DNA of 64,000 nucleotides from Heloderma charlesbogerti. Lineage: Eukaryota > Chordata > Lepidosauria > Squamata > Helodermatidae. The translations under genes and the position numbers were made by a program. Location: positions 1,736,001 through 1,800,000 of the forward strand of contig JANEZZ010001871.1 of NCBI GenBank assembly GCA_026122225.1. Direction: 5' to 3'. Position 1 is the first letter of the stretch; each line of letters starts with the position of its first letter. The notes below the pieces were generated by a model that saw only the letters and a program-made list of their open reading frames with translations, searched no databases and was not told the DNA's origin. This document shows positions 9,925 through 60,810 of the stretch, piece after piece.

Positions 9925-10770
9925 TAGGGATGTCAGAGAATTCTGCCACAGATCTCGGTGAGGCTGAATGCCAATGCATTCGGCCCCCTGAAATCCGTGG
10001 CGGAACGAAGCCCCCCCACCCTGTGAAAGGCGCGCGAAACGGGACACCTACCTGCTGCCGTTCGCGCTGACTTGTTGAGAATGGTGGCCGCGGCTGCCAT
10101 TCGTTCATCACTATAGCCATGATAGGCTACGTAAATACTTACATAGCCTATCACGGCTAACACAGGGACGCCATTTGCATCCCTGCGGAAGCTGTGATAG
10201 GCTGTGTAAATATTTACGTAGCCTATCACGGCAAAAAAAAGGGAACGCAAATGGTGGCGGCTACGGCGGCTGCCATTTGCATTCCCTTTTTTTTTTGGCC
10301 ATGATAGCCTACGTAAATCTTTACGTAGGCTATTATGGCAAAAGAGAGAGGCGCAAATGGCGTAGTGGCCGCCATTTGCGTTCCCCCCCTTTTATTGCTG
10401 TAATAGGCTACGTAAATATTTACGTAACTTATTATGGCAAAAAAAAAGAGGGAATGCAAATGGAGGCCGCTGTAGCCGCCGCAATTTGCGTTTGCTGTTT
10501 TGTTGTTGTTGTGATAGGCTACGTAAATATTTACGTAGCCTATCACAGCAAAATACAGGGATGCAAATAGTGGCTGCTACGGCAGCCGCCATTTGCATCC
10601 CTGCAGGCTGCCCAGTGGCTGATTGGCTGTGGGTGGCCCCGGCTGGCAGCTCCACGGAATCTCTGTGGAGCGGAGCCGGCCAGAGAGAATTTTGGGGGGA
10701 GGGACGGAGCACCTCCCCTCCACCGCGAATGTCACCCTTTGAAAAGGTTAGTGACTTTCGTACATCCCTA
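9925..10770 (+). mobile_element. Serial-palindrome hAT MITE, copy 1
   Basis: Ends are TAGGGATGTCAGAGAATTC and the complement TTTCGTACATCCCTA. Flanks AGTATTAA and GGTATTAA agree at 7 of 8. The interior carries five hairpin modules built on GATAGGCTACGTAAATATTT and its complement, each self-complementary over about 36 bp. They are separated by self-complementary AACGCAAATGG/CCATTTGCGTT stretches. It is CpG-rich. Outward splice-donor-like sites are CAGGTAGGT on the minus strand at 10046-10055 and AAGGTTAGT on the plus strand at 10744-10752. Reading frames here are shadows of the palindromes. Confidence 0.9.
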
Positions 10771-10784
10771 GGTATTAATGGTGG

Positions 10785-11050
10785 CTGCCATTAGCATATC
10801 TTGGGAAAATTATGCCATAATTTGCATATTTTACACCATTTGCAGCCATAAAGCACTTATGTCTATGTAAATTGTGGCCGTAAACTGCTTACTTCTATGT
10901 AAGTGTTTATGGCCACAATGTATGTAGAAGCAAGCACTTTATTGCCGCAATTTACATAGAAGTGAGTGCTTTATGGCCACAAATGGTGTAAAATATGCAA
11001 ATTACAGCCATAATTTTCCCAAGATATGCTAATGGCAGCTGCCATTAGCG
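10785..11050. repeat. Long imperfect palindrome in the outer hAT
   Basis: GGCTGCCATTAGCATATCTTGGGAAAATTA on the left pairs with its complement ending at GCTAATGGCAGCTGCC on the right. Internal stretches (ACTTATGTCTATGTAAATTG and matching complements) form secondary hairpins. Confidence 0.8.
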
Positions 11051-11209
11051 TATCTTGCCTGTGTTAAAATCAGAAAATTGTCCTGCGCAAAATCCAGAGG
11101 TCGAGCAGGTTAGCAGAACCCATCTGCTGCAGACTCTGCCGGTTGGATTCTTGGGAATCTGACCTTATTGGAGTCTGCAGTGGATTTCTCCAGTATCCCT
11201 AACTCTGAC

Positions 11210-11999
11210 CAACAGGGTCTCACCTGAGTCTCAGGCAAAGGCCTTTCCTAGCCCTGGAGAGGATGGATATTATCTTGCTTCATTAACTTCTTTTTCCGTT
11301 ATGATGACACAGATACAAATGTTATCAAAATCCTCAGGAGCAGAAATCAACAGACATTTGCTTGTGCCTGCAGTAGCCAGAAACTAACCTTACGAATTAG
11401 ATAGAAGATGTTATACTGTAGGTATTTCCAATCAATAGATATTTCTAGCAATAGCAATAGCTGAGATTTTGCTTGAATAAGGTGTTGTAGAACAAAACAC
11501 TGTATGCCATCTATCACTGGTGGTGCAGTATGGGATAGTGGATAGTGTCAGACTTGAATGGGGAAAACTTGGGTCTAAAAATCCTAAAAATCTTCATTGG
11601 ATAGCAAATCACGAATGTTCATGATAACTTGCTTCACGGGGTCTTCTGAAGACAAAACTGGGAAAAACCCGTTGGACCCTGCCTGAGCTCCTTGGAGGAA
11701 GGATTTAATAATCAATATTTGAAGAAAAATAATAGTGCATGAATAGCATTTTTTTTTAAAGAGAAAGAATAGAAGCTTGCATACTATGGGGGTGCTTCGA
11801 TTTTAGTTCACAAAATGACTTCTTCACAATGAGCTTTGTCGTCATCCTCCCTGTTATGGCTTGTGAGAAGTTGCCTGTGAGTAGGGGTAGGGTTGGGGTG
11901 CAAAGAAGAATCTGCGCATTTATTTTAGGGGAAGGCAGCTGTCACCAGAGCAAGTGGAAAAAGATAAGAGAATGAAGGCAGTGAGGCAGGGTAGCTGAT
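11210..11999. other. Unique DNA, nothing recognised
   Basis: No repeat family or gene is visible. There is a short oligo-T patch near 11750. Confidence 0.45.
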
Positions 12000-12215
12000 G
12001 GCCAAAACAGACATTAATTTAAATCCATATCTAGCAGCAGTGTCATTTTTTTTCATTTAGAGTAGGTGCATGCACGGGGACAATCTGGATCAGGCCCCTA
12101 CATGGGGATGGGTTTTTTAAAGATCTGGATCAGGCCCCTTGCACTTATTCTAGAGTAAAAATGGAAAAAAGGCACAACTGCTAGATATGGATTTAAAGTA
12201 ATGCCTGTTTTGGCC
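12000..12215. mobile_element. Fold-back MITE
   Basis: Inverted termini GGCCAAAACAGACATTA and the complement of TAATGCCTGTTTTGGCC are joined by arms sharing TTTAAATCCATATCTAGCAG. Length is 216 bp. The flanks show no clear duplication, so the superfamily is open. Confidence 0.7.
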
Positions 12216-12577
12216 CTGAACACCAGCTGGAAAGTGCGCTTTCCCAAGAGTACTGAGGTAAGGCACGGAGAGAGGAAATATGTTTGGAAGTGCTTGGTTA
12301 TACTTTGCCTCTCATTAAAAGGGTAATATGTGAATTGGCCCTTTGTATGCCCCACCTAGAAGCAACCAGAGGTGGTAAAGCTGTTGAGGTAAAAGATCAA
12401 GTGACTCAAGGGTAAGGATGGGGGAGAAATTAGTTCAGTTCATATTGTAATACAAACTTACTTTTGGACCAATACTTGAACTGAAACTCAGTTATCCTTA
12501 GAAATTTGCACTTCTCCAAATTTTGCAGTGGAGTTCTCCAATAAAAATAATATATTAGGGAAACATATACAAACAAA
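12216..12577. other. Unique AT-rich DNA
   Basis: Starts with plain sequence. From about 12435 (TTCAGTTCATATTG) it may be the left arm of an old AT-rich element. The possible right arm, containing GATGAACTGAACTGAAG, lies near 13448 beyond the Bov-B and LTR-like insertions. Confidence 0.35.
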
Positions 12578-12687
12578 ATGAACTTGAGCACCCTCCGGGA
12601 GAGAGCGGAGGACAGGAAGGCCTGGCATGCTATGGTCCATTGGGTCACGTAGAGTTGGACACGACTTAACGACTGAACAACAACAAA
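12578..12687 (+). mobile_element. Bov-B (RTE) LINE 3' tail
   Basis: It matches the end of the larger Bov-B at 49262-49372: CACCCTCCGGGAGAGAGCGG, AGGACAGGAAGGCCTGGC, then ACGACTTAACGACTGAACAA and CAACAA. It is severely 5'-truncated to about 110 bp, as is common for RTE insertions. Confidence 0.9.
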
Positions 12688-12740
12688 TGCACACAAAAAT
12701 GCATATATTAGTGAAAATAACATTAAAATGCATTTCTGAA

Positions 12741-13277
12741 GGTTTGAGGCCTACAGAGGCCTATAGAGGTAAAGGGAAAAACAGTCAGGCTTAGAGGCCT
12801 GGAGTTTTTTATTGGGAGAGGGTATCTCTCAGAGGAGTAGTTTTATTTCTCTGGTTAAATTTCAGTTTCATTTCCCCAGTTACGTTTCATTTTGAGGGAG
12901 GAGGGTATATAAAGAGAGCGAGAGAGCCAGTAGGAAAGAGCTGGGGAGAACAGATCCTGAAGAGGGAGCAGGAAGAAGCAGTCTGGAGAAGTCTAAGCTA
13001 GGGTAAAGGAACGTGTTTTGCAACTTTTATTTTCGCTTAATGCCTTTTGTATCACTCAGCTCTATTGTGTAAATACCTTTAATTGCTTGCTTTAATTTAC
13101 CAGCAAACTGTTGTGGTTAAACCCTGTATCTAGAGTGTCAATCACCCCATGCCAACAGCCTAAACCCCATGTTATTGGAAAGGGGAAGGTAAAAGAGGGA
13201 AGGTGGGATGCTTAAGGAGGCAAGAGATCCTTAAGGAGGTGCTCAGAGGGTCCAGGTCATGATGGGAGCCCTGGCAG
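12741..13277 (+). mobile_element. LTR-like dispersed repeat, copy A
   Basis: This 537-bp segment is shared with 25902-26948. It runs from GGTTTGAGGCCTACAGAGG to GAGCCCTGGCAG. It contains GGGTATATAAAGAGAGCGAG as a TATA-like box near 12903, then a downstream block (GCAAACTGTTGTGGTTAAAC and CTAGAGTGTCAATCA) reminiscent of R-U5. No coding frame and no clean duplication were found. A solo LTR is the most likely reading. Confidence 0.5.
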
Positions 13278-13861
13278 CATTATATCAGAAAAATTACTGC
13301 AAAAGTATATATTTAGCAAAATTGCATAAAAATGTGTACATTGGGAGAAATATGCATAAAATGTGTAAGAAATTGTCATGCAAACTTAAAAACTTTCTCA
13401 GAGTTTGAGACAAACCAAACTTAACATTGGAAGAATTCTCAAAGTGTAGGATGAACTGAACTGAAGACTGAAAAATGAGAAACTGAGAGAAACCGAGACT
13501 GACCGATTTGTCCATCTTGACTTTTGTGGGCCAATGAAAGGACGCTAAAGGCCTGTTCTCATGTTCCTTCAGGGGTGTAAAAGCTGCTTTCTCATGGCAA
13601 GGACCCACATTGGGTGAGGGTTTCTGCATGGGTCTTTCCCAGCCAGTCATTGCTATCTTCCCTCAGGCAACATGGGGAGGTCAAGGGTGATGCTGGAGAA
13701 CATATCTGTATTGCTGCTGCTCACATTTTATTTTCAAATGTTTGAAGAGGGCTTTTGAGGGTCCAGGGGTTACCATACAGAGAAGTGGCCCCCACATCCT
13801 TGAGGAAACATGGGAAGGGGCCTTCTATGTAGTTCTCTCACTGAGCGTTATTTGGGTAAAC
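13278..13861. other. Unique DNA
   Basis: An AT-rich stretch near 13290-13460 may be the right arm of an old element (AAAAATGTGTACATTGGG and similar). The rest is unrecognised. A 118-codon antisense frame has no homology that I recognise. Confidence 0.35.
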
Positions 13862-14410
13862 CAGGGGTCCCCAAACTTTTTGGACCTGTGGGCACATTTG
13901 GGAAGTTAAGAGCGCAATCCTGTCAAGATAGGCAGCTGCCTCCAAACTCGGAGGCGACCACCAATCCAAAGCGAGGCAGGAGAGGCACGGGGGGGGGGGA
14001 TCATTTCCTCCACGCCTCTCCTGCCCTACTATTTTCCGCTAGACAGCCGTTTTGGGCTGTCTAGTCGTGGAGGGGCCGACCGGGAGAGGAGGCTGCTGTA
14101 CAACACATTGGATGTGCTGTACACGTAGCTCCGCTCTCCCCGCCCTGGAACACCCCCATCCCCGCCCCTTTTTAGTCGCTCCACACTCCTCTTATGAGCA
14201 TGGAGGATGGGGCTTCTCCGTGCTGCCTCCAAGGCAGCACGGACATGGGGGGGGGAGGTTGGTTTTCTGGGAACCGACCTTGGAGTGCAGGCTCCGAGGT
14301 CAGTTCCTGGAAAGGAGCATATCCTATGGCCCTCTAGACAGTGTCTAGTGGCCATAGGGTTGCTCCCTCCAAAACAGCTGCGGGCACCACCACTAAATAG
14401 CTCCCATGGA
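13862..14410 (+). mobile_element. hAT-type MITE (GGGGTCCCC family), interrupted
   Basis: It starts CAGGGGTCCCCAAACTTTTT with GGGCACATTTGGGAAGTTAA. After a 459-bp insert it resumes as AAAACAGCTGCGGGCACCAC. An opposite-strand copy ends at 42243 with the complementary terminus. The right end is not distinct. Confidence 0.6.
13909..14367. mobile_element. GC-rich Harbinger-like MITE, copy 1
   Basis: Ends AGAGCGCAATCCTGTC and the complement of GGCCATAGGGTTGCTCCC are inverted relatives of the GGGTGCAATCCTAT terminus. Internal landmarks GATAGGCAGC and ACTCGGAGGCGACCACC recur in the copies at 26440, 43495 and 57901. TTA lies on the left; the right TTA has decayed. It inserted into a GGGGTCCCC-type MITE. 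Confidence 0.75.
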
Positions 14411-15414
14411 GGATGTGGCTGTGTGTGTGTAGAAACAGGGAGTCTAGAGGCCGAGAGGGAGGGGAAACACCAAGGCAAAGGGGGTAGACAGATCTACCAT
14501 CCCTCACCTTGTCAATATTACACCTAACTTTCTCATGGAAATTTGCCCATTGATTTAAGTGCTTGGACATCTCTATCATGTTCTAATCTAGGGAAACATT
14601 GGCACTGCCTGTGCTTGTAGAAAAATACCTTGACATAAACTAAAACAAGCCCCGTCATTTAATATTTAAAGCCATTGACTTAAAGCCTAATGAAGTGAAT
14701 TTAATATATTTGGTTACTGGCAACAGTATTTAAATGAAGCACATAATTTGTTAAATACTAGCAAATACGCTTCAAGCTTTAAAGCTAATGTATTTTTCAT
14801 TTTCATTTTTTTTTTGCTTTAGTAGTACCCATAAAGTATCAAGATGCTGCTTTCCCCAAACCTCAACTTTTGGAGTTGTAAGGTCACAGTAGCAGATGGA
14901 ATTTTTTCCCCTTTTAATAAATAGAATAGGGCCAATTCTACTTCTTCATTGGGTACCCACCACCCCTTCTAGCTACTTGATCTCTGTAATTTTTGACCTG
15001 TGTATTACTGTGGATTTAGGAGCCATAGCAACACTTTGTTCTCTTTAAGCTTGCAGCTTTTTTCTTTAGGTAAGCCCAGATTTCATCATCTAAGTGTATT
15101 TCTGTGGCTGCATGGTAAGAGCATGAAAATAATTGCACCCTGCAGTCTCAAACACTACACTCAGGGGGTTCTGCCCTTGTGCCTTTAATGTAATCTAAAA
15201 AGCTGACTTGAACAGGGCTTGGCAGTGGAATACCTGCTAGCCATATCTGATCCCTCAAAAGGCTGTCTATCCTCTTTGTCCAGAAATGCTGGCATATTTG
15301 TGAGTTGTCACAGAGCAAACTCATGCCATGGAAAAGCTTCAGCATGCTGGATGTGACCAGGAGGCCCTACATTGATTGTTTTAGAATATCAGTCAGTTCA
15401 CAATATAGTCTGTG
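14411..15414. other. Unique AT-rich DNA, possible conserved element
   Basis: About 14590-14870 is AT-rich, repeat-free and ends in a long pyrimidine tract followed by TTTAGTAG. It lacks any transposon hallmark in a window that is otherwise full of them. The rest is unrecognised. Confidence 0.4.
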
Positions 15415-16079
15415 GGCCTGTTCAGATGCACATGGGGGCTGAATCTACACATAGCATTTATACCGTTATCATACCATTATCATAACTATTGGTACACATA
15501 ACACCAATGGGCACCAACAGTTATGATAACGGTATAACTGCTATGTGTAGATTCAGCCAGGGGGGAAGGTGGTTAGGGCAACTATGCGGTTTTTTTAATT
15601 AAAAAAAAGCAAAACAGCGTAGCTCTCACACGACCAGAAACCATGCGGTCCCGCACGGTTCCGCTAACCACCTCCTCTCGATAGTTACCTGGTGATCTTC
15701 CCAGTTACCAAGTATCCTGGTGTTCCCGCAGCGTGAATGGGCTCCCAGCAGTTGCTCCTGCATCTGAAATGGCCACACGACCACAGAGAAAGTCCGCAGT
15801 AGCTAGAGTGTCGCCTGCAGTGGTAGATGCTCTAGGCGGCAGACTCTATGGTCGCGGCCTGGAAGTCTCTCCAGACTCCTGTTTTAATCACTGGGGAGCC
15901 CACCAGATAACACGGTAAGCCATCCTGGGTCCCCTTAACCCTTTTGCAGGGGGTGGTTAGTGAGGGTGGCTTACTAACCATGGGGAATGTGGTTTTTTCC
16001 CCCTCATGACATGTGAAGCCACTGTCGTTAGCAAAAATTCCCTAACCAACATGGCTTCACATTATATATGAGCAAGGCC
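15415..16079. mobile_element. Fold-back MITE with inner fold-back
   Basis: The outer termini GGCCTGTTCAGATGCACAT and, read from the right, GGCCTTGCTCATATATAATG are imperfect inverted repeats. Matching inner stretches include GGTGGTTAG on both sides. A 122-bp fold-back (15437-15558) is inserted near the left end. The superfamily is undetermined. Confidence 0.5.
15437..15558. mobile_element. GGCTGAATCTACAC fold-back MITE, copy 1
   Basis: An almost perfect 122-bp inverted repeat: GGCTGAATCTACACATAGCA leads in and its complement leads out, with TACCGTTATCATA and CAGTTATGATAACGGTA inside. It is non-coding. A second copy lies at 17990-18122 within the antisense L1. Confidence 0.85.
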
Positions 16080-16532
16080 TGTGTGTGTGTGTGAGAGAGA
16101 AGGATCACTGAAGATGGTCTTAAGGTCTGGGCAGGTACATATAGGAGGAGACGATCCTTCAGGTAGCCTGGCCCCAAGGTGTTTAGGGCTATGAATGTTA
16201 ATATCATTTAGTATTTTGAACTGGGTCCGGACCTGGACTGATAAAGAAGAGGGAGAGGTGCAGCCCATTTTCTAGGGCCCAGCAACTGACTGCATTGTCT
16301 TGGGAGCACAGCTTTGTTGTAGAGGAAGGAGCTAATAAGCTTTTGTAGAAGAGGCTGTTAATGCACTGTATCTACTTTCGGTTTCGTCGCAGAACTGAGA
16401 TCTGAACATTTCAAGAAGAGTGTTTCCTTTCCTGCTTTTCTGCTACTTAACCTCTAGGTGGCACTATGGTTTTCAAGAATAGCAAAATTATACAGGTGGA
16501 AAAAATGTTTTCTTTCACTTTCACAAAATAGA
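16080..16532. other. Unique DNA
   Basis: A short TG run at 16080 and otherwise unremarkable sequence. Nothing is recognised. Confidence 0.4.
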
Positions 16533-17455
16533 TAGGGGTGCACGAAAGTCCCTTACCTGTCCTCGAAGCTTTTCACGGTGGGGGGGAGGCGCTTCGCTGC
16601 TCCCCCCGCGAAGTTTAGGCCGGGGGGGAGGCTTCCTGCCTCGCCCAGCCGAAATTCAGGCCGGGGGGAGGCGCCTCGCCTCGCCCGGCCGCAAACTAAA
16701 AAGTTAAAAAAAAAACACGCCCCCGTGATAGGCTACGTGACGATTAACGTAGCCTATCATGGCTAGATCTGCAAAGTCAGCCATGATAGGCTACGTAAAT
16801 CGTCACGTAGCCTATCACGGGTGACTTAAAAAAAAAAAAAAGCGTGTACGCAAATGGCAGCCCCCATAGGGAGCCGCCATTCGCGTTCCTTATTTGGTCG
16901 CTGTAGTCTACGTAAATCTTTACGTAGACTACGGCGAAAATAAGGGCAACGCTGCGTTGCCCTTATTTTTGCCGTAGTCTACGTAAAGATTTACGTAGAC
17001 TACAGCAACCAAATAAGGAACGCGAATGGCGGCTCCCTATGAGGGCCGCCATTATCCGTTCGCGCTTTTTTTTTTTAAAGTAATGTAGCCTATCACGGCT
17101 GACTTTTTTTATTTTTTATGTAGCCTATCACGGCTGACTTTGCAAATCTAGCCGTGATAGGCTACGTTAATCGTCATGTAGCCTATCACGGGGGCGTTTT
17201 TTTTCTTTTATTGGAATGGCGGCGGCGGCAGCCGGTCGAAAGACCGGCTGGTGCTCCCGCCCCGGATGAAGACCCGCCGAACCGCCGGCCGGACCTGCCG
17301 CTGGGAGGGACATTCGCCAAAGGTAAGTCCCGTCCCGGGCGGGGTGCGGGGGGCAGGGGGGTGCTGAGAATTTCTCCCCGAAACTTGTTCGGGGGGCCGA
17401 ACATGTTGGCGCTCGGCCCCCCGAAGTTTCGGGGAGAAATTCTCCGCCAACCCTA
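16533..17455 (-). mobile_element. Serial-palindrome hAT MITE, copy 2
   Basis: It is 923 bp, flanked by perfect AAAATAGA duplications (16525-16532 and 17456-17463). It is reversed relative to copy 1: the TAGGGGTGCACGAAAGTC arm is on the left and the GGAGAATTTCTCC arm is on the right. The centre, from about 16725 to 17185, is a large palindrome with its axis near 16953 and nested hairpins on GATAGGCTACGT and TAGTCTACGTAAA. Outward donor-like sites are ACAGGTAAGG on the minus strand (16550-16560) and AAAGGTAAGT on the plus strand (17319-17328). Confidence 0.92.
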
Positions 17456-17463
17456 AAAATAGA

Positions 17464-17751: not shown

Positions 17752-19600
17752 TTGAATTTAATTTAATTTAATTTTTCTTTTCTTTCTTTAAATAATTTTT
17801 ATTGTGAATTTCACGTAACAAAACAAAAAAAAACAAAACAAAAAATTGGAAGTATAACAACATGTTTTAAAGTCCTCAGTTTCAAATATTACAACATTCT
17901 AGAAAAGGAAAAAAGAACAGATTACACATAAACTTGGGTAAAAGCAGACTAAATATCCAATGATATGTCCGTTTGCAAGTGATGCCTAAGGCTGAATCTA
18001 CACATAGCAGTTATACCGTTATCATACTGTTATCATAACTATTGGTGCCCATTGGTGTCATGTGTACCAACAGTTATGATAATGGTATGATAATGGTATA
18101 ACTGCTATGTGTAGATTCAGCCTATACCACGCTTTCAAATGTTGCTAGTGTTGTTAGGTCTTCAATCCTTTGCATTATGGGCGGTGAGCTTTTATCTTTC
18201 TAGTATTGTAGTATCAGTCTTTTAGCAGCCAGGAGGGCATGAAAAATCCATTTACATTGACAGTGTGTTACATTCCAAGAAGCAGGTAAATAGTTTAAGA
18301 GAACATGTACATTGGTAAATATGAAATTGCTTTCCAATGCAAAGTTTATCTGTATGATAACTTCCTCGCAAAAGGGGGCAACTATTGGGCATTTCCCAAA
18401 CGCATGAATAAAAGAAGCATTAACTGCATTAAACCTCCAGCAATTAGCTAAGTTTAACAAACCTTTGTTAAAGAGATGTGATGTCCAATAGACCAGAAAT
18501 AAAAGTTTTTTGCTGAATAAGACGTAACTGGAGGTCCATAGAGATATCAGATACAGACGCCAAAATGGCAGTCAGTTGATTAAACAGAATAGGACATTCC
18601 AATTCCCTGTTCCATTCTTGCTTTAGACCCCATGTATCATATTTATTCACCGATGAAAAGTATTTATAAACATGAATTATGGGTCGATATACCTGGTCAT
18701 CTTCAATAAGTGTTTCTAATAGCAAAGGAGACGCCAAGGCAGTAAAAGCAGCAGGATCAAATCTAGGTTCTAACAAATGTTGCAATTGCAAATACTGCCA
18801 TTCAGCTGTAGCAGGCTGATCAAATTTATCTTGAAAAGCTGAAAATGGCAAAAACCCATCATCAACACCCAATAATTGATCTTGGGTAAAAATTATCTTT
18901 TCTGTCCAGGTCTGCCATAAACACATTTTCTTTCCAATTTTAAAATCGGGATTTCCTCATGACGTCAATTTGGCATGGGAAAATGGGGCAAACTGTAATT
19001 GGCGTGACATTATATGCCACACTTCTCTGACCACCGAGATTGTGGAAAGAGCTCTGTTCACCTTAATATGCTGAGAACCTAATGCCATCCATTTGGAGAG
19101 AGGTTCCAGACAGGAAGATTCCAAAACCAACCAAAGTGGAACACCAATCTAAGTGGAAAAACCCAAAATTTAGTACAGGTCAGCAGATAAGCCCAATGAT
19201 ATGTAGCAAGATTGGCAAAGCCAAACCCACCTTCTTTATTTGGAAGTTGCACCCTTTTCAAAGATATTATTGGTGGAAACAAAGCATTAAACTTTTGGAA
19301 ATACTTGCCAGGTATAAGTAAGGGGATCCCATGTATAACATAAAAAATTGAGGTATAATATTCATCTTGAGAGTATTCACCTTACCCCATAAACTCATCT
19401 TTAAAGATGCCCATCTATCTATATCTTATGAAATATCATTAATCAACTTGTTTAAATTTAACTTGTGCTTTTGAGATATGTCTCTAGGAATAATTATTCC
19501 CAAATAAGTAATGAACTCTGGGCACCATCAAAATTGCCAATTGGCTAATACACTAGAGTATATCCTATTAATTTAGTATTGGAATGCCTTGAGCATTGAG
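17752..19600 (-). mobile_element. L1 LINE, 5'-truncated, antisense
   Basis: On the minus strand, fragments match the distal part of L1 ORF2. One is the GGFGFANLATYHWAYLL-type block near 19.2 kb. Another is the FLPFSAFQDKF block, with the YLQL string further on, near 18.8 kb. The third is the cysteine/histidine C-terminal stretch (CWRFNAVNASFIHAFGKCP) near 18.4 kb. Then come a 3' UTR and a T-rich (antisense A-rich) end near 17.76-17.85 kb. Frames are broken by shifts. The endonuclease and most of the RT are absent. A fold-back MITE interrupts the 3' UTR. Confidence 0.85.
17990..18122. mobile_element. GGCTGAATCTACAC fold-back MITE, copy 2
   Basis: A 133-bp inverted repeat of the same family as 15437-15558, with identical terminal GGCTGAATCTACACATAGCA. 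One arm carries an extra AATGGTATGAT-type repeat. It inserted into the 3' UTR of the antisense L1. Confidence 0.85.
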
Positions 19601-34231: not shown

Positions 34232-35047
34232 TAGGGATGGCAGAGAATTCCGCCACGAATCTTGGTGAGGCCGAATGCCAGTGCATTCGGCCCCCCAAAT
34301 CTGTGGCAGAATGGCCTGCCACCCTCCCGCCCCCCGCAGGTCCCCCCCGGGACGAGACTTACCTGGGGCGGATCTTCCGGGTGGCGGTGGCTCCGGCGGT
34401 GGCAGTGGCAGCTGGTCTTCCGACTGGCTGCCGTCGCTGCCATTTGCAATCTTGTAGCTTTTTTTTTTTTTTTACAAGACGTGATAGGCTACGTAAAGAC
34501 TTACGTGGCCTATCACGTCTGGGTTTTTTTTAAAAAAAACAACGCGTACGCAAATGCGTACGCTTAAAAAAAAAACCAAAATACGTAGCAGACGCTATTT
34601 GCATTCCCCCTTATTTTCGCTGTCGTAGTCTACGTAAATATTTACATAGACTAAGATGGCCAAAAATAAGGAACGCAAATGGCAGTGGCTGTAGCCGCCG
34701 CCATTTGTGTACACGCGTTGTTTTTTTTGGTTTTTTTTTTAAGCCAGACATGATAGGCTATGTAAGTCTTTACGTAGCCTATCACGGCTGACTACAGGGA
34801 TGCAAACGGAGGCGGCTACGGCTGCCGCCATTTGTGTCCCTGCTAGCCAGTGGCCGGATGTCCGGCTGCTGGTGGAGCTGGCCGGCGGCTTCGCGGAATC
34901 CCCGCGGAGCGGAGCTGGCCGGCAAGGATTCTAGGGAGAAGGCGCGGAGCGCCTCCCCCCCGGCGAGGATTCCGGGGGGAGGGACGGAGCGCCCCCCCCC
35001 CAGCGGAACCCGGCAGAGCCAGGTAAAGGAACTTTCGTACATCCCTA
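34232..35047 (+). mobile_element. Serial-palindrome hAT MITE, copy 3
   Basis: It is 816 bp, from TAGGGATGGCAGAGAATTCC to CTTTCGTACATCCCTA. Flanking octamers GAAGCAGG and GGAGAAGG agree at 6 of 8. Hairpin modules lie near 34483-34520, 34620-34656 and 34748-34790 (GATAGGCTACGTAAAGACTT and relatives). The subterminal hairpin GCCGAATGC/GCATTCGGC is present near 34270. Outward donor-like sites are CCAGGTAAGT on minus (34357-34366) and CCAGGTAAAG on plus (35019-35028). Confidence 0.9.
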
Positions 35048-35526: not shown

Positions 35527-35870
35527 TGTTGTACAAAATGCTAGTTTTGCCCCCTGGAGGCTAGTCCAATTTGCCCCAGAGAGGAGAGTCAACTTCAGGC
35601 TGGGTCCAACTTGATTTTATTGTTTGCAAACAGTTCGACAAAGGAGCTCACGCTCAAAGCAGAGTCGACCCTGGGCAGCTCCCGTGCTACAGTTTTATCA
35701 CTTAGCTTGCATTCCTCAGCCAGCGTGTTACTTTTGATTGGTTGCCAGCGGTTTGCCTAGCAACCTTATCTTAGGGTTACTGTCTGCTCATTCCAGGCAT
35801 GCGCAGCTTTTACAGTACTATGTGCTGCTTAAGACACATACAATGGCTTTTAGGTTACATTTTTACTACA
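35527..35870 (-). mobile_element. 3' LTR of the antisense provirus
   Basis: On the plus strand it runs TGTTGTACAAAATG to TTTTTACTACA. In sense orientation it contains AACCAATCAAAAG as a CCAAT-type box, GATAAAACTG as a weak TATA and AACAATAAAATC as a polyadenylation signal. By eye it differs from the 5' LTR at six positions. Confidence 0.95.
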
Positions 35871-41006: not shown

Positions 41007-41350
41007 TGTTGCACAAAATGCTAGTTTCACCCCCTGGAGGCTAGTCCAATTTGCCCCAAAGAGGAGAGTCAACTTCAGGCTGGGTCCAACTCGATTTTAT
41101 TGTTTGCAAACAGTTCGACAAAGGAGCTCACGCTCAAAGCAGAGTCGACCCTGGGCAGCTCCCGTGCTACAGTTTTATCACTTAGCTTGCATTCCTCAGC
41201 CAGCGTGTTACTTTTGATTGGTTGCCAGCGGTTTGCCTAGCAACCTTATCTTAGGGTTACTGTCTGCTCATTCCAGGCATGCTCAGCTTTTACAGTACTA
41301 TGTGCTGCTTAAGACACATACAATGGCTTTTAGGTTACATTTTTACTACA
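41007..41350 (-). mobile_element. 5' LTR of the antisense provirus
   Basis: 344 bp, same length as the copy at 35527. On the plus strand it runs TGTTGCACAAAATG to TTTTTACTACA. By eye six differences from the partner give about 1.7% divergence, so the insertion is relatively recent. Confidence 0.95.
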
Positions 41351-43494: not shown

Positions 43495-44612
43495 GGGCAC
43501 AATCCTATCGATTGCGCCCTTGATGATTGGATGCCTCTGAACTTGGAGGCTTCCGATCATCCAATGCAGAGGGAGAGGAATGGCGGAGATGGTCTTCACC
43601 TCCCCACCCTCCTGCCATGCATTTTTCTAGGGATGTCAGAGAATTTCTCCACGAATCTCAGGGAGGCCAAATGCCAGCGCATTCGGCCCCCCGAAATTGG
43701 TGGAGAAACGGTCTGCCCCCCACCCCCCCCAGGACGGGACTTACCTTGTGCGAATATCCCTGGCAGTGGCGGCTCCGGCAGTGGTTCGGTGGCGGCGGCT
43801 GCGGCGGCTGGTCTTCCGACTGGCTGCCGCCGCCGCCATTTCCAAGTTAAAAAAAACAAAAAGCAAAAAAATGTGATAGGCTACGTAAAGATTGACGTAG
43901 CCTATCATGGCTAGATTTTTAAAAAGCACCGTGATAGGCTATGTAAATGTTTACATAGCCTATCACGGCTGAGTGAAAAAAAAATTAAAAACTGCGCGTA
44001 CGCAAATGGCGGCGTCCATGGGCGCCGCCATTTGCGTACGCGTGTTTTTTTTTCTTTCACTTAGCCGTGATAGGCTACATAAACATTTATGTAGCCTATC
44101 ATGGCTGACTGCAGGGACGCAAACGGCGGCGGCTATGGCTGCCGCCATTTGCGTCCTGGCAGGACAGGATTCGCGGCGGGAGTGACGGGGCGCCTCCCCC
44201 CCAGCCAGAATTTTGGGGGGGAGGGACGGAGCGCCTCCCCCCCACTGCGAATCAACTTTCGGGTTCAGGGAAGTGACTTTCGTACATCCCTACATTTTTC
44301 TACCAATGGTGCTTCAGAGGGGAAGGGAAGGAGGCTGGAGAGTCTTCAGGATAGTTCATATCCTGGCCTCTCTAGTCTGCTCCCCTCCCTGCCCACCAGA
44401 ATGCCTCTTTTTCCTCCTCTCTGAGGTCTCTTTTCCAACCTCAGAAGCCAGCCAGTGCAGTTCTTTCCATGCTGGCTGCAAGGGTGAGGGTGAGGGTGTC
44501 CGATCTCTGACTCTCCCTTCTGAGATCGGAACACTATCTCTGACCTCGAAGAGGGAATCCCTTCTACCCTATGGCCCCTCAGATGATGTCTAGGGGCCAT
44601 AGGATTGCTCCC
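43495..44612. mobile_element. GC-rich Harbinger-like MITE, copy 3, split
   Basis: TTA flanks at 43492-43494 and 44613-44615. Ends GGGCACAATCCTATCG and the complement of GGCCATAGGATTGCTCCC match the family terminus. A serial-palindrome hAT MITE (43628-44292) is inserted at CATTTTTC. Without it the element is about 450 bp, like its relatives. Confidence 0.88.
43628..44292 (+). mobile_element. Serial-palindrome hAT MITE, copy 4
   Basis: 665 bp with perfect duplication CATTTTTC (43620-43627 and 44293-44300). Ends TAGGGATGTCAGAGAATTTC and the complement TTTCGTACATCCCTA. Modules lie near 43873-43910, 43931-43968 and 44065-44104, plus a CGTACGCAAATGGCGGCGTC palindrome near 44000. The donor-like site CAAGGTAAGT is on minus at 43739-43748. 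The right-hand site has decayed to CAGGGAAGT (44266-44274). Confidence 0.92.
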
Positions 44613-47994: not shown

Positions 47995-48797
47995 TTGGGA
48001 TGTATGAAAGTCACTTACCTGTCTGGCGGGGTGATTCACGGTGGGGGGGAGGCGCTCTGCACCTTCCCTCGAAATCCTAATCTGGCTGGCTCCGCTCCGA
48101 GGAGATTCTGCGGAGCCGCCGGCCAGGGCTGCCCACAGCCGGACATCTGGCAAGCAAAACAAACAAACAAAACACAAAAGAAAACAACAGCGTACGCAAA
48201 TGGAGGCGGCTACAGCGGCCACCATTTGCATTCCCTTTTTTTTGCTGTTTTAGCCTACGTAAATATTTACCTAAGCTATTACGGCGAAAAAAAGGGGAAC
48301 GCAAATAGCGTAGTGGGCACCATTTGCGTTCCTCCCCCCCCCTGCTGTTTTAGCCTACGTAAATATTTATGTAAGCTATTATGGCGAAAAAAAAAAGGAA
48401 CGCAAATAGTGCCCACTACGCTATTTGCGTTCCCCTTTTTTTCACCATAATAGCTTACATAAATATTTATGTAGGCTAAAACAGCGAAAAAAAAGGAACG
48501 CAAATGGTGCCAACTATGCTATAGCCGCCGCCATTTGCGTACGCTGTTTTTTTTTTAGCTTTCCATGATAGGCTACGTAAATACTTACGTAGGCTATCAC
48601 AGCAAAGAGCAGGATGCAAATAGTCAAAAGATCAGCCTCCACCGCTGCCACCGGAGCCGCTGCAGGTAAGTTTCCTTCTGGGGCTATTCCGTGAGGTGGC
48701 GGGGGATGGGAGGCCATTCTGCCATGGGTTTCGGGGTGCCGAATGCCAGTGCATTTGGCCTCACTGAACTCCGTGGTGGAATTCTCCGCCATCCCTA
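47995..48797 (-). mobile_element. Serial-palindrome hAT MITE, copy 5
   Basis: 803 bp with perfect duplication CGCAGATG (47987-47994 and 48798-48805). It is reversed: the GTATGAAAGTCACTTACC arm is on the left (first base drifted to T in TTGGGATG) and the GGAATTCTCCGCCATCCCTA arm on the right. Modules on TAGCCTACGTAAATATTTA lie near 48250-48285, 48350-48385, 48450-48485 and 48566-48602. Outward donors ACAGGTAAGT (minus, 48013-48022) and GCAGGTAAGT (plus, 48662-48671) are both perfect. It splits Bov-B, which reads continuously across when it is removed. Confidence 0.94.
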
Positions 48798-51278: not shown

Positions 51279-51703
51279 TAGGGATGGGGGAGAATTTCTT
51301 TATGACCCCAACCAACGCCAACGCATTCGGTCCTCCGAAGGTTGTTCGGGGAGAAATTCTCCGCCCCCCCCCCGGGATGGGACTTACCTTTCACGAATGT
51401 CCATCCCGGCGGCGGGTCCCGGCGGCGGTTCGGCAGGTCTTCGTCAGGGGCGGGGGTGGCAGCCGGTCTTTTGACCGGCTGCCGCCGCCGCCGCCATTAC
51501 AAGAAAAGTAAAAAAAAAACAACGCCCCTGTGATAGGCTACGTAACGATTAACATAGCCTATCACAGCTAGATTTGCAAAGTCAGCCGTGATAGGCTACG
51601 TTAATCGTCACGTAGCCTATCATGGGTGACTTAAAAAAAAAGCGCATACGGCTAATTGCAGCCCCCATAGGGAGCCGCCATTCGCATTCCTTATTTGGTC
51701 CCT
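51279..51703 (+). mobile_element. Serial-palindrome hAT MITE, copy 6, truncated
   Basis: The left half only: TAGGGATGGGGGAGAATTTC, a GC-rich arm like that of copy 2, two hairpin modules (near 51530-51566 and 51588-51625), then GGAGCCGCCATTCGCATTCC and TTATTTGGTCCC, where it stops. The donor-like site AAAGGTAAGT is on minus at 51382-51391. The right arm is missing, so no duplication can be tested. Confidence 0.85.
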
Positions 51704-53752: not shown

Positions 53753-53984
53753 GGGGGAGCAGGAAGGAGGAAACAGGAAACCCCTGTAGGCTATAGAGTT
53801 CCAAAGGCTACCTATGCTCATGCATTAACTAGCTAAATGCCAAACTGTCCCCTTCCTTTAACTTGCAGACAGGGTTGCAATGTTCCCAACACATACAGAG
53901 TTTGCCCATACAACATGCTGAATGCGCATTGGGTGTGTACGGGCCTGCTACTGCAATCCTGCTCTCCCTTTATGTTCTTTCAGC

Positions 53985-54160
53985 CACTAAAGCTAACATA
54001 AAGTACATTGCGCTAGTACAAGAGACCTCTAGCATGACGTCAATAGCATTAGCTGGCGTGACAGGATTCCCACAAAACCCAGCACACCAGCTAACACTGT
54101 TGGCATTGTGCTAGAAGCCCCTGATGCTAACACAACATAATTTACATTCGTGTTCCTGTC
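53985..54160. mobile_element. Imperfect fold-back element
   Basis: AGCTAACATAAAGTACATTG and CATTAGCTGGCGTGAC on the left match the complement of GATGCTAACACAACATAATT and CACACCAGCTAACAC on the right. Translations of the two strands look alike for this reason. The centre lies near 54070. It may be an old MITE. Confidence 0.55.
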
Positions 54161-56477: not shown

Positions 56478-56612
56478 AACCTGTAGCCCCCCACATGCTG
56501 CTGGCCTGCAACTTCCATTATCCTTGACCATTGGCCATGTTAGCCAGGGCTGATGGGACTATGAGTCCAACAACATCTCAAAGGGCTGCATGTTCCCCAT
56601 TCCTGCCATAGA
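56478..56612. mobile_element. hAT-type fold-back MITE
   Basis: CTGTAGCCCCCCACATGCTG with CAACTTCCATTATCC on the left, and GGGCTGATGGGACTATGAGT with CCAACAACATCTCAAAGGGC on the right, are inverted arms of the common fold-back family. Confidence 0.65.
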
Positions 56613-57639
56613 TGGCCAGTGAGCTACGTTTGGTGGTTTGGCAGGTCACAGCTTGTGAAGGCACAGGGTCAGTCAAGGTTGTCTTGGTCAATACCTGCCT
56701 ATTTAGCCTTTGTCTTTTTTGAGTCGATCTTCTTCTCATCTTCTTTTACTTTTTTATATATTTTAAATATGTACAGCTTATGTTCTATATTTGTTTCTGC
56801 CAAATCCCTAGAATGGCCTAATATGCACTTTCTCTTAGAAAAAAGCCAACCTATTGTCTGAAATTATGTCACAACGCCTAAACCTGCAGAGGAATTTGGC
56901 TGCTATGTATTATGGAATCAGTGTTATCCCAAAAACAAATGGCCTGGTGGTACTTGAGTGCTTCTGTAGAATTAATTTGAACATTTCCATTTGCCTGCAT
57001 TATATACATAGCCTGAAAAGATGTGGATGATTTTTTAGCATGCTTGGGGAAAGAGGCTTTGTGGCTGAAATACCATGTATGCATGTGCATAGCTGCTACT
57101 TCACAAAAAAAGTTTCTTGAGAGAATGACACAAACAGCAGATGAGACAGTAAACTTCTATCTGGACAATAGCATTTCAGACTACAGGTGGAAGCTCATAC
57201 TGAATGCTCTGCTATCAGAAAACATTTCCTTGCACAGAGAAGACTAGCACGTCAGGGATATGTCTATGCTGGAAGCCTTTACCCTGACATACTAGTTTTC
57301 TGTGTGCAGTTATTATTCCCCGTCAGTATGTCATACGTAAAAATGGAGAAAGGGCACATCTGTATAATAGAATACACATTTTGGGGGTTAACAAGGATGA
57401 AATAAAAGGAACAAAGAGGACAAGAATGGGGATGAAGAGAGACAAGAGTAGATAGATAAGTGGGACAATAAGACATGTGAAAGTCAATACAAGAGGTATA
57501 AACAGGATAAGAAAAGAGGGATTCAATGTTGAGAACAGGCAAGTTTGGTGCTGATTTAGATAAGAACACAGATAGAAATGAGTTGATGGAAAGTGCTTCA
57601 CATGCTAATTTTGTGTTTGTTAGGCTGCTTTTAAAGGCA
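56613..57639. other. Unique AT-rich DNA
   Basis: Nothing recognised; the frames at 57279-57752 are low-complexity shadows. Confidence 0.4.
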
Positions 57640-57752
57640 CAGAGCATTGTGGTGAAGATGGTGGGAGGGACCCTTCTAAGACACCCTGAGCTCCTTTGGG
57701 GGGAAGGGTGGGATAAATGTAATAGATAAATAAAAATAACAAAAAATAACAA
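57640..57752 (+). mobile_element. L2-type SINE/LINE tail
   Basis: CACCCTGAGCTCCTTTGGGG, GAAGGGTGGGATAAATGTAA and TAGATAAATAAAAATAAC match the usual tail of L2-related SINEs. Confidence 0.6.
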
Positions 57753-57900
57753 TGCATAAATTAAATTCCCTTCTAAAAAACCACAATTAGAGGGATCATG
57801 GTGACCATCTATTCATTTTATAATGAAGAGAAATGGCTCATTCCCCCAAGCCTCTCCAAACACTTCATAGAATTGTGTTTCTCAATCATTATATGATTTA

Positions 57901-58308
57901 GGGTGCAATCCTATGGGGATAGGCAGCCACCTCCGAACTCAGAGGCGACCGCCTATCCAGTGCAGGGCAGGAGAAGCATGGAGGGGATTGTTCCCTCCGT
58001 GCTTCTCCTGCCCTGCATTTGTGGCTAGACAGCCAATTGTGGTTGTCTAGCTGTGGGAAGGCGGAGCGGGGGAGGAGGCTGCCGGATGACACGTAGGATG
58101 TGTTGTACCGGCATTTCCACCTTCCCCGCCCCAGAATGCACCCTGGAACGCCCCATTTTGGCTGCTCTGTGCTCCTCTTCTGAGCGTGGAGCACAGGGCT
58201 GTTCCACACTGCCTGCGAGGCAGCGCGGAAGGGGGGAAGGTTGGCTCCCGGAAGACCACATATCCTATGGCCGTCTAGCTGCTGACTAGCGGCCATAGGA
58301 TTGCTCCC
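57901..58308. mobile_element. GC-rich Harbinger-like MITE, copy 4
   Basis: 408 bp, flanked by TTA (57898-57900 and 58309-58311). Ends GGGTGCAATCCTATGG and the complement of GGCCATAGGATTGCTCCC. It is the cleanest copy, with no insertion. The long frames on both strands come from its GC-rich interior. Confidence 0.92.
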
Positions 58309-58311
58309 TTA

Positions 58312-59344
58312 TTTACTGAAATAGCTTTTAAATATCTGAAGAAATGGAAGATAGAATACTGAAACGAAAGCCATATCTTGCAAGTACTGTTGCTCCTTCC
58401 GCCTTCTTTTAATCTGAAGAAAGTTAAACAGAACTTGACTCTGAACATAGAGTTTTGCTTCTTAATATCAGCTTAAATGTAGGTAGCAGTAGCAAGGCTT
58501 TTTCCGCAGGCAAAATGCTTTACAATGAAGAAGATAACGGCTTCCACTGCAGTTCTCCAAATGCTGTTTCTTACAAATATATTGCATCCCACTGGCTTTA
58601 TGCAATAGCGAGAGATGGCAGCATTACTACTCCTAGTGGACTTGATTAATCACAGCAGAAAGTCTAATTCCAGGTGTCATATCCTGACAGATCTCTTATT
58701 ACACAGAGAGTAGGAGAAATTATATCTTTCATCACTCTTCAGGCAACATTATACCAAGTCTAAGACAAATTCATGAAACGGGGTCCATTCTTCATTGATG
58801 CACACTATATAATGAAAGAATTTTATATTTAATTTCAGAAATTGTACAGATAGGTCTTACCACTTTATAAGTTTAATTTGCAGGCTTATAAAGTGAATGT
58901 CTTTCCTGTTCCATCTTGGTAATGAACTTGTTCAACCTTGTTTTGCTGGTCACCGATACTACAAGGATTTAGGTGTATCAGGAATGACATGGAGTATGGC
59001 ACATAGTCTGCTACAGTATGAAGGATGTTGAAGTCTGGAGTTACAATGCATGGATCAGGCGCAATCATAATCTTACTTTACTAGTGTATGGCTAAATACA
59101 ACACTTTGGTAAACAATGAATTGGTTCAATAACAGATGCTCTTTCATCTTCTGTCTCTCATTCTCTAAAATCCACACAGCTACAAATGTATGGATATTTC
59201 ATTTACATAGGGGTGGTTCACACATGTAGCAAACCCAGCTTGATTACCGCTATGAAAACATGGGGCTCAAACTGCTGCATTCACATGGATAGTCTATCCA
59301 CAAAGAGCACCAAAATACAGGGCTTACCTTTGCAGAAGCCATGA
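58312..59344. other. Unique AT-rich DNA
   Basis: Long repeat-free tract. Stretches such as 58540-58680 look like possible conserved noncoding sequence. No gene is recognised. Confidence 0.4.
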
Positions 59345-59481
59345 CGCTTCTTCTTCTTAGAGGAGGGGCCATGACCCAGTGGGAATGCACATGCAATGCA
59401 TGCAGAAGTTCCCAGGTCAGTCCCTGGCATCTCCAGGTACAAGGATGAAGGATCAGGGGATGGAGGGCTGCTGCCAGTCGA
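59345..59481 (+). mobile_element. tRNA-derived SINE, interrupted
   Basis: CCAGTGGGAATGCACATGCA, GCAGAAGTTCCCAGGTCAGT and CCCTGGCATCTCCAGGTA, then GGGCTGCTGCCAGTCGA. It stops abruptly at a TAGGGATGTC terminus. Confidence 0.7.
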
Positions 59482-59482
59482 T

Positions 59483-60172
59483 TAGGGATGTCGGGGGAAT
59501 CCATTTGGGGCATAGAGCTTGGAGAGTTTTTGCGATCTCGGCCCTCCAGACACTGGCTTGTGTGATGAGTCAGGCCAGCTTGCAGTTTTCCACTTTTTTT
59601 GATTTGCGCAAATTGCGATTATATTATATTTTGATCGGTGCAAATTGTGTAAATATTTATAGAAATCACAATTTGTGCAAAATCGCAGCTGTAAATTGCA
59701 CAATTTGTGCAAAGACCATTCATGCCTCTCCCTTCTTTAGAAGGTGGGGAGGGCACCCAGTTGGAGGCTGGCTTCTGCCTCTGCTCACACCTTTATGGGT
59801 TCCTTGCCTGCGAGGAACCCATGAAGGTTTGAGTCAGGCGGCGGAGGCAGGAGTCACCCTCCAACTGTGCTTTCTCCCTTTCTTGGAAGGAGGGGAGGAT
59901 GCCTGGTTGGAGGTCGATGCCTGACAATGAGAGCAGGCTGTTGCTGCCAGCTCCTAGGCCCTCTGGACGCACACCAGCAGCCGCCTTGTTCTGGAGAGTG
60001 GTGGGAGCCATTTGCCCATTTCCCCCTGTTTTTGCACTGTGGCTATGCCCGTGAGTGGCAGATCTGTGATTTTTCTGGTTCAGTCTGTGGAGGCAGATAT
60101 GCCTGTGATATGTTGGTGGTTTGGGGGATTTACTCTGCAAAAATCATATGAAATCAATGAGGATCCCATTTT
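59483..60172 (+). mobile_element. hAT-like element, left end only clear
   Basis: TAGGGATGTCGGGGGAATCC opens the element immediately after the broken SINE. Near 59600-59715 are interleaved inverted repeats (GCGCAAATTGCGATTATATT, AATCACAATTTGTGCAAAAT). I could not identify the right terminus or a duplication, partly because another hAT MITE follows at 60181. Confidence 0.45.
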
Positions 60173-60180
60173 GATTTGAT

Positions 60181-60810
60181 TAGGGATGTTAGAGAATTCT
60201 GCCACAGATCCCAGGGGGGCTGAATTCCAATGAATTCAGCCCCCTGGAATCCGTGGCGGAACGGAGTCCCCTGCCCCTCCACCCCGTGAAAGCCCCGCGA
60301 AACGGAGCCTACCTGGCTGCGGCTCTGGCTGTGGCTTTGGCTCCGGCAGCGGCAGCTGCCGGGTTGCTGTGGCCGCAAATGGCGGCCATCGTAGTGGCCA
60401 CCATTTCCGCCTTATGCCAGCCCTGTGATAGGCTACATATATATTTACGTAGCCTATCACGGCTAAAGCGAGAGCGCAAATGGTGTAGGGTCCCTGCTTT
60501 AGCCATGATAGGCTACGTAAATATTTACGTAGCCTATTACGGGCCACCATAGGGACGCAAATGGTGTCCCCTACTCAGGGTGCCATTTGTGTCCGCACCA
60601 GCCCAGCAGCAGCTGGAAGCCCCGCTGTGGGTTGGCCCGGCTGGCAGCTCTGCGGCCTGGCTGTGGAATGGAGCTGGCCAGGCAGGATTCCGGGGGGGGA
60701 GGAACAGATCACCTCCCCCCCCGTCGAGGATTCTGGGGGGAGGAATGGATCGCCTCGCCCCACCTGCGGAACCCGGCGGAGCCAGGTAAGCGGGGATTTG
60801 TAAACCCCTA
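60181..60810 (+). mobile_element. Serial-palindrome hAT MITE, copy 7
   Basis: 630 bp from TAGGGATGTTAGAGAATTCT to GGATTTGTAAACCCCTA. Flanks GATTTGAT and GATTTTAT agree at 7 of 8. There are two hairpin modules, near 60424-60463 and 60503-60545, fewer than in copies 1 and 5. The subterminal hairpin GCTGAATTCCAATGAATTCAGC is present. Donor-like sites are CCAGGTAGGC on minus (60307-60316) and CCAGGTAAGC on plus (60782-60791). Confidence 0.9.

What the first reader, a model, noticed from the sequence alone, without database searches (positions are those of the whole stretch)
9925..60810. hAT MITE family with outward-facing splice donors at both ends
Seven CpG-rich TAGGGATGT-ended MITEs carry a 5' splice-donor consensus pointing out of the element on each side. 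In the GAGAATT arm it lies 103-127 bp from the end: AGGTAAGT in five of seven copies (34357, 43739, 51382 on minus; 17319, 48662 on plus), AGGTAGGT or AGGTAGGC in the other two (10046, 60307, minus). In the GAAAGTC arm it lies 17-19 bp from the end: AGGTAAGT, AGGTAAGG, AGGTAAGC, AGGTAAAG and AGGTTAGT (48013, 16550, 60782, 35019, 10744); only copy 4 has lost it (GGGAAGT at 44266). Constant position and keeping through drift elsewhere suggest constraint, or a very young family. With a CpG-rich core, this would make each copy a portable bidirectional promoter plus first exon. That function is inference.
Basis: partly seen in the sequence, partly recalled or inferred. Interest (0 to 1): 0.78.

Follow-up and report, generated by a model that had tools for sequence, protein, structure and literature searches.

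The report
Mobile DNA with outward splice donors
A very abundant small mobile DNA element in this animal genome carries, near both of its ends, a near-perfect signal for starting RNA splicing that points outward into the neighbouring DNA, and this signal has changed far less than most of the sequence around it, so a copy could in principle start a new exon for whatever gene it lands beside.

Summary
The window has six complete copies and one truncated copy of a fold-back hAT MITE with 8-bp target duplications. Its 18-base right tip occurs 27,286 times in the 2.30-Gb assembly. Near both ends lies MAG|GTAAGT, pointing outward. Of 50 right ends picked by tip alone, 41 carry AGGTAAGT immediately inside; of 46 left arms in those loci, 33 carry it exactly and 11 with one mismatch. 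In 68 full elements, 107 of 115 AGGTRAG matches lie at these two places. Sequence beside the motif differs between subfamilies while the motif hardly changes: 12 of 796 donor positions against 240 of 3318 nearby non-CpG positions, about what drift after insertion predicts. So source elements, not single copies, appear constrained. The hAT transposase relatives whose ends I could read lack the motif, but the true partner is unproven. Best reading: conserved U1/5' splice sites serving element-born first exons. Promoter activity and splicing are unproven: CpGs are decaying, two searches for fossil spliced copies found none, and no RNA data were available. A DNA-binding motif that mimics a donor is the main rival.

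The parts
9925..10770 (+). MITE copy 1, complete; GAGAATT arm at 9925, TSD AGTATTAA/GGTATTAA
10046..10053 (-). copy 1 outward donor AGGTAGGT (GAGAATT arm)
10745..10752 (+). copy 1 outward donor AGGTTAGT (GAAAGTC arm)
16533..17455 (-). MITE copy 2, complete, inverted; TSD AAAATAGA, 0 of 8 mismatches
17321..17328 (+). copy 2 outward donor AGGTAAGT (GAGAATT arm)
16551..16558 (-). copy 2 outward donor AGGTAAGG (GAAAGTC arm)
34232..35047 (+). MITE copy 3, complete; TSD GAAGCAGG/GGAGAAGG, 2 mismatches
34357..34364 (-). copy 3 outward donor AGGTAAGT (GAGAATT arm)
35021..35028 (+). copy 3 outward donor AGGTAAAG (GAAAGTC arm)
43628..44292 (+). MITE copy 4, complete; TSD CATTTTTC, 0 mismatches; folds on itself (z -19)
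43739..43746 (-). copy 4 outward donor AGGTAAGT (GAGAATT arm)
44267..44274 (+). copy 4 lost donor AGGGAAGT (GAAAGTC arm)
47995..48797 (-). MITE copy 5, complete, inverted; TSD CGCAGATG, 0 mismatches
48664..48671 (+). copy 5 outward donor AGGTAAGT (GAGAATT arm)
48013..48020 (-). copy 5 outward donor AGGTAAGT (GAAAGTC arm)
51279..51703 (+). MITE copy 6, right part missing
51382..51389 (-). copy 6 outward donor AGGTAAGT (GAGAATT arm)
60181..60810 (+). MITE copy 7, complete; TSD GATTTGAT/GATTTTAT
60307..60314 (-). copy 7 outward donor AGGTAGGC (GAGAATT arm)
60784..60791 (+). copy 7 outward donor AGGTAAGC (GAAAGTC arm)
43869..44169 (+). palindromic core of copy 4 (approximate limits): alternating hairpins A (GTGATAGGCTACGTAAA...) and B (CGCAAATGGCGGC...), unit number varies between copies

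Best explanation
A fold-back hAT MITE family has evolved, and kept in its source elements, a strong 5' splice site (MAG|GTAAGT) near each end, both reading outward. Most likely each is a U1-binding donor for RNA that starts inside the CpG-rich palindromic core and leaves on that side, so a copy is a small two-way transcription cassette with two unrelated first exons that could be spliced to acceptors in the flanking DNA. The gain for the element would be a more active, accessible insertion (promoter-proximal donors recruit initiation factors), not a product. Shown: position, orientation, abundance, constraint at source level. Inferred: U1 use, promoter, splicing, advantage.
For: AGGTAAGT directly inside the right tip in 41 of 50 places selected on the tip only. 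Left arms found with a profile that excludes the donor: 57 of 84 exact and 17 more with one mismatch, 98-132 bp from the end, with subfamily-specific flanks; the 84 include 8 from the window and 30 from loci picked by similarity to copy 3, donor included, and in the 46 from tip-picked loci 33 are exact and 11 have one mismatch. In 68 full elements 56 AGGTRAG lie at the right end, 51 at 90-135 bp from the left end and 8 elsewhere. One arm per distinct upstream context: -2 is A in 95 of 98 and -3 is A or C in 92 of 98. Donor differences 12 of 796 against 240 of 3318 in non-CpG flanks, and 11 of 516 against 605 of 7669 on left arms. The arms share little but MAGGTAAGT. hAT transposase relatives read here lack it. 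Published: U1 and splice sites near a promoter can promote initiation (passages of PMC8097089).
Against: No RNA, CAGE or ATAC data. CpG transitions 358 of 2091 against 316 of 7669 elsewhere suggest methylated copies. No fossil spliced junction in two searches: 11 and 2 departures, none a spliced copy. Other windows in the arms are as conserved as the donor: donor ranks 6 of 136, 26 of 130, 27 of 93, 27 of 91, 7 of 90. In full elements the right site is exactly AGGTAAGT in only 32 of 68 (left 47 of 68); many of the rest are AGGTAAGG. A right-arm variant AGTTAAGT, which destroys GT, is in two copies with the same exon end (L036, L078), so it may have amplified. On the right, -4 is also A or C in 50 of 54, so the M at -3 is only moderate evidence. 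TATAAA is absent and GGGCGG is not enriched. [quoted passage not shown]
Confidence: 0.45

Rival explanations
1. AGGTAAGT is a DNA motif: a subterminal binding site or transposition enhancer for the transposase or a host protein, and its match to the splice consensus is coincidence.
For: On the right the motif is continuous with the conserved tip; conservation is at source level, as expected of a transposition signal; inverted orientation at the two ends fits a binding site; the retroposed-junction searches found nothing.
Against: hAT transposase elements sharing the left tip carry no outward CTTACCT, CCTACCT or CTCACCT in the first 400 bp in the three left ends scanned (L096, which is L091, L098, L099), and 10 of 10 fossil right ends have no AGGTAAG, AGGTGAG or AGGTAGG within 300 bp, though the true right end of these elements is unknown; distance from the left end varies from 98 to 132 bp; the shared word is the U1 complement (recalled), and variation sits mainly at -3 (A/C) and +6 (T/G).
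Confidence: 0.3
2. Cassette exon or natural exon trap: T-rich tracts plus AG at the foot of hairpin A act as acceptors, so a copy in an intron is included as an exon in either orientation.
For: Best acceptor-like scores exceed shuffles on both strands (median 7.8 against 3.3 and 5.9 against 2.8); implied exons of the better ones are mostly 108-289 nt (59 of 64).
Against: Acceptors are neither strong nor constant: 37 of 66 and 27 of 62 arms reach an arbitrary score of 7 with recalled frequencies, unlike the donors; T-tracts are a by-product of the palindromes; inclusion should harm the host gene.
Confidence: 0.12
3. No function: a young family whose founder happened to carry two donor-like words, kept by descent only.
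For: Target duplications are nearly intact in the elements kept (44 of 62 perfect; at most 2 mismatches was the entry rule), so many copies are recent; donor differences in single copies are at about the neutral level; the donor is not the single best-conserved window.
Against: Left arms of window copies differ 14-48%, subfamilies differ in the 20 bases next to the donor, yet the donor hardly changes.
Confidence: 0.1

Closest known systems
Maize Ds and Ds1 (hAT, Ac/Ds) with splice sites near their termini
   Same: Short non-autonomous hAT element (Ds1, 512 bp) with 8-bp duplications and splice donors close to a terminus; PMC5432752 gives Ds1 donors at 12, 22 and 33 bp (passages read).
   Different: In the exonized transcripts modelled there the donor is used on the side where the host transcript enters, so the body of Ds1 is removed; here donors are on the exit side on both strands. 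AGGTRAG facing inward near an end was seen only 2 times in 68 elements.
hAT MITE families of animals, such as Mar in Drosophila (PMC3517528; search listing and start of abstract only)
   Same: Short non-coding hAT derivatives with terminal inverted repeats.
   Different: Here with a CpG-rich core of alternating palindromes and conserved outward donors; from the listing alone I cannot say whether Mar has splice sites.
MITEs with subterminal transposition enhancers (Stowaway/Osmar, recalled, no call)
   Same: Internal words that the autonomous partner lacks and that help the MITE multiply.
   Different: Those act as DNA; here the word is a near-perfect 5' splice site.

Membership tests
hAT MITE | 8-bp target-site duplication | tested here: met
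   0-2 mismatches in 6 of 6 complete window copies; 62 genomic elements with at most 2 mismatches, 44 perfect (at most 2 was the entry condition)
hAT MITE | short terminal inverted repeats of hAT type | tested here: met
   TAGGGATG-like at both ends; that this is the hAT type is recalled
hAT MITE | moved by a hAT transposase of the genome | tested here: inconclusive
   150 PF05699 places scored of 871 candidates, 10 fetched as loci; one clade shares a left tip of about 23 bp, but its true right end was not found
hAT MITE | no coding capacity | not tested
   elements are 503-1208 bp; their own ORFs were not scanned
5' splice site | match to the consensus MAG|GTRAGT (consensus recalled) | tested here: met
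5' splice site | use as a donor in RNA | not testable with these tools
   no RNA data; fossil junction searches negative
CpG-island promoter | CpG not depleted by methylation in the germ line | tested here: not met
   transitions at CpG 17.1% against 4.1% at other sites in left arms (the rule for calling ancestral CpG favours CG), though observed/expected stays near 0.95
CpG-island promoter | capped transcription starts | not testable with these tools
   none
Ac/Ds-type spliced element | donor on the entry side, so that the element is removed as intron | tested here: not met
   AGGTRAG outward at the two ends 107 times, elsewhere 8 times, in 68 elements; 2 of the 8 face inward near an end

The most novel reading that the evidence does not exclude
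A DNA-transposon MITE, in tens of thousands of copies or more, selected for carrying two divergent first exons: its success depends on U1 recruitment on both sides, and it seeds the genome with ready-made alternative first exons in every orientation.
Probability: 0.3. Interest if true: 0.88.

Novelty: new variant of a known kind. Interest (0 to 1): 0.62.

Why it matters
If the sites are used, this is a natural two-way exon-donating cassette spread over a large animal genome, a ready supply of new promoters and first exons, and a case where a splice signal is part of what makes a DNA transposon spread. It makes a testable link between U1, promoter activity and transposition. If instead the motif is DNA-bound, it is a striking mimic that could mislead gene annotation wherever the family lies.

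Tried and rejected
Fossil spliced copies. If element-born RNAs are spliced, retroposed copies should leave the element exactly at AG|. For one left-arm exon end, 11 genomic places leave there with the next two bases changed: nine read as small deletions, a duplication or the insertion of another copy, one joins core sequence (L095), and one (C2798:135875) runs into unrelated DNA. That last copy still has its own right tip, so I read it as a truncated genomic copy, not a retroposed RNA. For one right-arm end, 2 places, both small deletions. The patterns also pass only part of any true junctions, no control for departures at other positions was obtained, and the number of intact exon ends was not counted.

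Conserved acceptors: sought, present but variable.

Known RNA families: none at gathering scores in the window; 11 weak matches in copy 4, all below gathering scores, which I attribute to the palindromes. Pfam on 10 window ORFs, none chosen inside a copy: nothing.

An autonomous partner with the GAAAGTC right tip: not found among the loci read. The CCCTA of hAT 'X' is an internal, fossil end, because similarity goes on past it.

Motif enrichment in 68 elements: AAATGGCGG (YY1-like, name recalled) 191 against 1.65 in shuffles, ATGCAAAT (octamer, recalled) 70 against 2.5; CCGGAAG, GGGCGG, NRF1 and CRE words not enriched. These are repeats of one family, so the counts are not independent evidence of a promoter.
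Full report
What is there. The window holds six complete copies and one truncated copy of a palindrome-rich, CpG-rich element. Complete copies have 8-bp target duplications with 1, 0, 2, 0, 0 and 1 mismatches and TAGGG-type ends, so they are hAT-type MITEs. The element reads: left tip TAGGGATGKCRGAGAATT; a hairpin of about 95 bp; a GC-rich stretch; a core of alternating palindromes (A, GTGATAGGCTACGTAAATATTTACGTAGCCTATCAC; B, CGCAAATGGCGGC...GCCGCCATTTGCG) whose number varies; a C-rich right arm; right tip GACTTTCGTACATCCCTA. Copy 4 folded as one strand is far more stable than 20 shuffles (z -19). The window belongs to an unnamed 2.30-Gb assembly of 3,246 contigs, and the exact right tip occurs 27,286 times in it, with no hit for the reversed control.

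The donors, window and genome. All stated motifs were found. In the window alone the case is modest: the left donor block is among the best-conserved (4 of 127 windows at least as high) but the right one is not (36 of 101). Genome-wide it is stronger. Of 50 places chosen only for the exact right tip, 41 have AGGTAAGT immediately inside it; the others have AGGTAAGG (3), AGTTAAGT (2), AGGTAAAT, AGATAAGT, one with the site shifted by four bases (L055) and one with part of it deleted (L042). A profile of the first 92 bases of the left arm, which excludes the donor, found 84 left arms: 57 have AGGTAAGT outward, 17 differ by one base, 3 by two, 7 by three or more. By source: 46 from loci picked by the right tip (33 exact, 11 with one mismatch), 30 from loci picked by similarity to copy 3 including its donors (19 exact, 5 with one mismatch), 8 from the window, which include the profile's own members and one false inner end (5 exact). 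The site lies 98-132 bp from the end, and its flanks fall into several quite different types (CCGCCCCAG|GTAAGTCTCG, TTCGCCAAAG|GTAAGTCCC, CGGCAGCAG|GTAAGTGCT and others).

Is it constrained? I collected 62 genomic elements with both ends and matching duplications (44 perfect, 17 with one mismatch, 1 with two; at most two was the entry rule) and added the 6 complete window copies; 34 of the 62 come from tip-picked loci, 22 from loci similar to copy 3, 6 from hAT loci. In these 68, AGGTRAG occurs 56 times within 30 bp of the right end pointing right, 51 times at 90-135 bp from the left end pointing left, and 8 times elsewhere. MAGGTAAGT occurs 84 times against a shuffle mean of 0.35. The site is exactly AGGTAAGT in 32 of 68 right arms and 47 of 68 left arms, and within one base in 63 and 60. 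Within five subfamily clusters of at least 8 members (39 and 13 of 68 left arms; 21, 15 and 12 of 68 right arms; the rest were not used; the cluster of 21 has AGGTAAGG as its consensus) the site differs from consensus at 12 of 796 positions and the non-CpG positions within 25 bases at 240 of 3318. A separate count on left arms, in clusters of 45, 20 and 7 of 84 (the last without AGGTAAGT in its consensus and so not in the donor count), gave 11 of 516 against 605 of 7669. The duplications give 19 mismatches in 496 positions, about 1.9% per copy and a lower bound because of the entry rule. The donor rate of 1.5-2.1% is therefore about what drift after insertion predicts, leaving almost nothing for change in the source elements, while the neighbours carry an extra 5-6%. 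I read this as constraint on sources and neutral decay of single copies. The limits: the donor is not the single most conserved window (ranks 6 of 136, 26 of 130, 27 of 93, 27 of 91, 7 of 90), and sequences are related, so no simple probability applies.

Does it look like a splice site and not some other word? Arms were anchored on GGTAAG with at most one mismatch (105 of 118 right arms, 77 of 84 left arms) and thinned to one per distinct upstream string (54 and 44; some of these differ by single mutations, so they are not independent). Position -2, not used in anchoring, is A in 95 of 98; -3 is A or C in 92 of 98 (G 6, T 0); +6 is T in 79 of 98 and otherwise mostly G; -4 and further upstream vary more. 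In the 68 full elements, among sites within two mismatches, -3 is C 35, A 30, T 1 on the right and C 42, A 20 on the left; GT is kept in 62 of 66 and 58 of 62. An unanchored alignment weighted by cluster shows the block too, with commonest letters at 0.76-0.97 on both sides taken together, against 0.37-0.70 in the 14 columns upstream on the right; on the left some flanking columns are as conserved (97 of 116 right tips kept, 19 without the C-rich block dropped, several of which also carry the donor). So the arms share little but the 5' splice-site consensus, and variation sits mainly where that consensus is known to be loose (recalled). Caution: on the right -4 is also A or C in 50 of 54, and AGTTAAGT copies show that loss of GT is not always fatal to an element.

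Partner elements. The genome has many hAT transposases (150 places scored of 871 candidates). One clade, 'X', begins with about the same 23 bases as the MITE's left end; a DNA search with the first 507 bases found further copies, and in three whose flanks were printed the flanks differ, so the end is real. The three X left ends scanned (L096, which is the L091 element, L098, L099) have no outward CTTACCT, CCTACCT or CTCACCT in 400 bp; L097's end was not located by my script and L100 was not examined. Ten of ten loci with the fossil right end TACATCCCTA have no AGGTAAG, AGGTGAG or AGGTAGG in the last 300 bp in either direction, but sequence similarity continues past this end, so X's true right end is unknown. 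One other transposase-bearing right end (L088) also lacks the word in the 112 bp printed. The donors thus look MITE-specific, which argues against an ordinary transposase-binding site, though the true partner is not proven.

How it may work. RNA starting in the core would leave on either side through a GC-rich exon and meet a strong donor: about 18 bp before the right end, or 98-132 bp before the left end. Splicing would then depend on acceptors in the flanking DNA. Donors near a start site can promote initiation and open chromatin (U1 with TFIIH; passages of PMC8097089), which would give the element a selfish gain without any product; the same review says that activation by internal exons needs both splice sites. 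Acceptor-like T-tracts with AG exist upstream of the donors on both strands but vary (37 of 66 and 27 of 62 reach an arbitrary score; recalled frequencies), so a first-exon reading fits better than a cassette exon. Against promoter activity: CpG sites in left arms show 358 transitions in 2091 against 316 in 7669 at other sites (the rule for calling CpG favours CG), so copies appear methylated; the high CpG content may reflect youth. Two searches for retroposed spliced products found none.

Compared with what is known. Ds1 of maize has donors at 12, 22 and 33 bp from its terminus, but in the transcripts modelled they are used on the entry side and remove the element (PMC5432752, passages read). 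Here they face out on both strands. Searches of open-access papers (listings only, apart from passages of PMC5432752 and PMC8097089) listed no paper whose title or abstract start reports a MITE with conserved outward donors at both ends; subscription papers and repeat libraries were not searched.

Verdict. What the site does is open: 5' splice site or U1 site 0.45 in the form stated, DNA motif 0.3.

Noticed in passing
window 29540, 33160, 59483: Three further TAGGGATGT tips that belong to other elements; no AGGTAAGT lies within them in the stretches printed, so other families with the same tip may exist without the donors.
   Followed up: partly
L091, 14-4696: A hAT element with a 908-codon open frame whose left tip equals the MITE's; related copies carry a fossil right end and up to about 800 bp of shared sequence beyond it, as if a new right end had been recruited.
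   Followed up: partly
L102 (C2798, about 137900 and 142300): Translations that look like exons of a vomeronasal type-2 receptor gene (recognised by eye, not by a search), a few kb from a truncated MITE.
   Followed up: no
window 35527-35826 and 41007-41306: Direct repeat of at least 300 bp, 98% identical, 5.5 kb apart.
   Followed up: no
window 4645-4718 and 6691-6764: Direct repeat, 99% identical over 74 bp and matching over about 143 bp, 2 kb apart.
   Followed up: no
window 15437-15535 and 18024-18122: Inverted pair of 99 bp, 94% complementary, flanking the 2.5 kb that holds copy 2.
   Followed up: no
C1876:15165 and C1876:72492; C1703:1414331; C2452:813991; C2798:86253: Five left arms that have lost just GTAAG next to AG (AG|TCTCG or AG|TCTTG), a recurring small deletion at the donor.
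   Followed up: no
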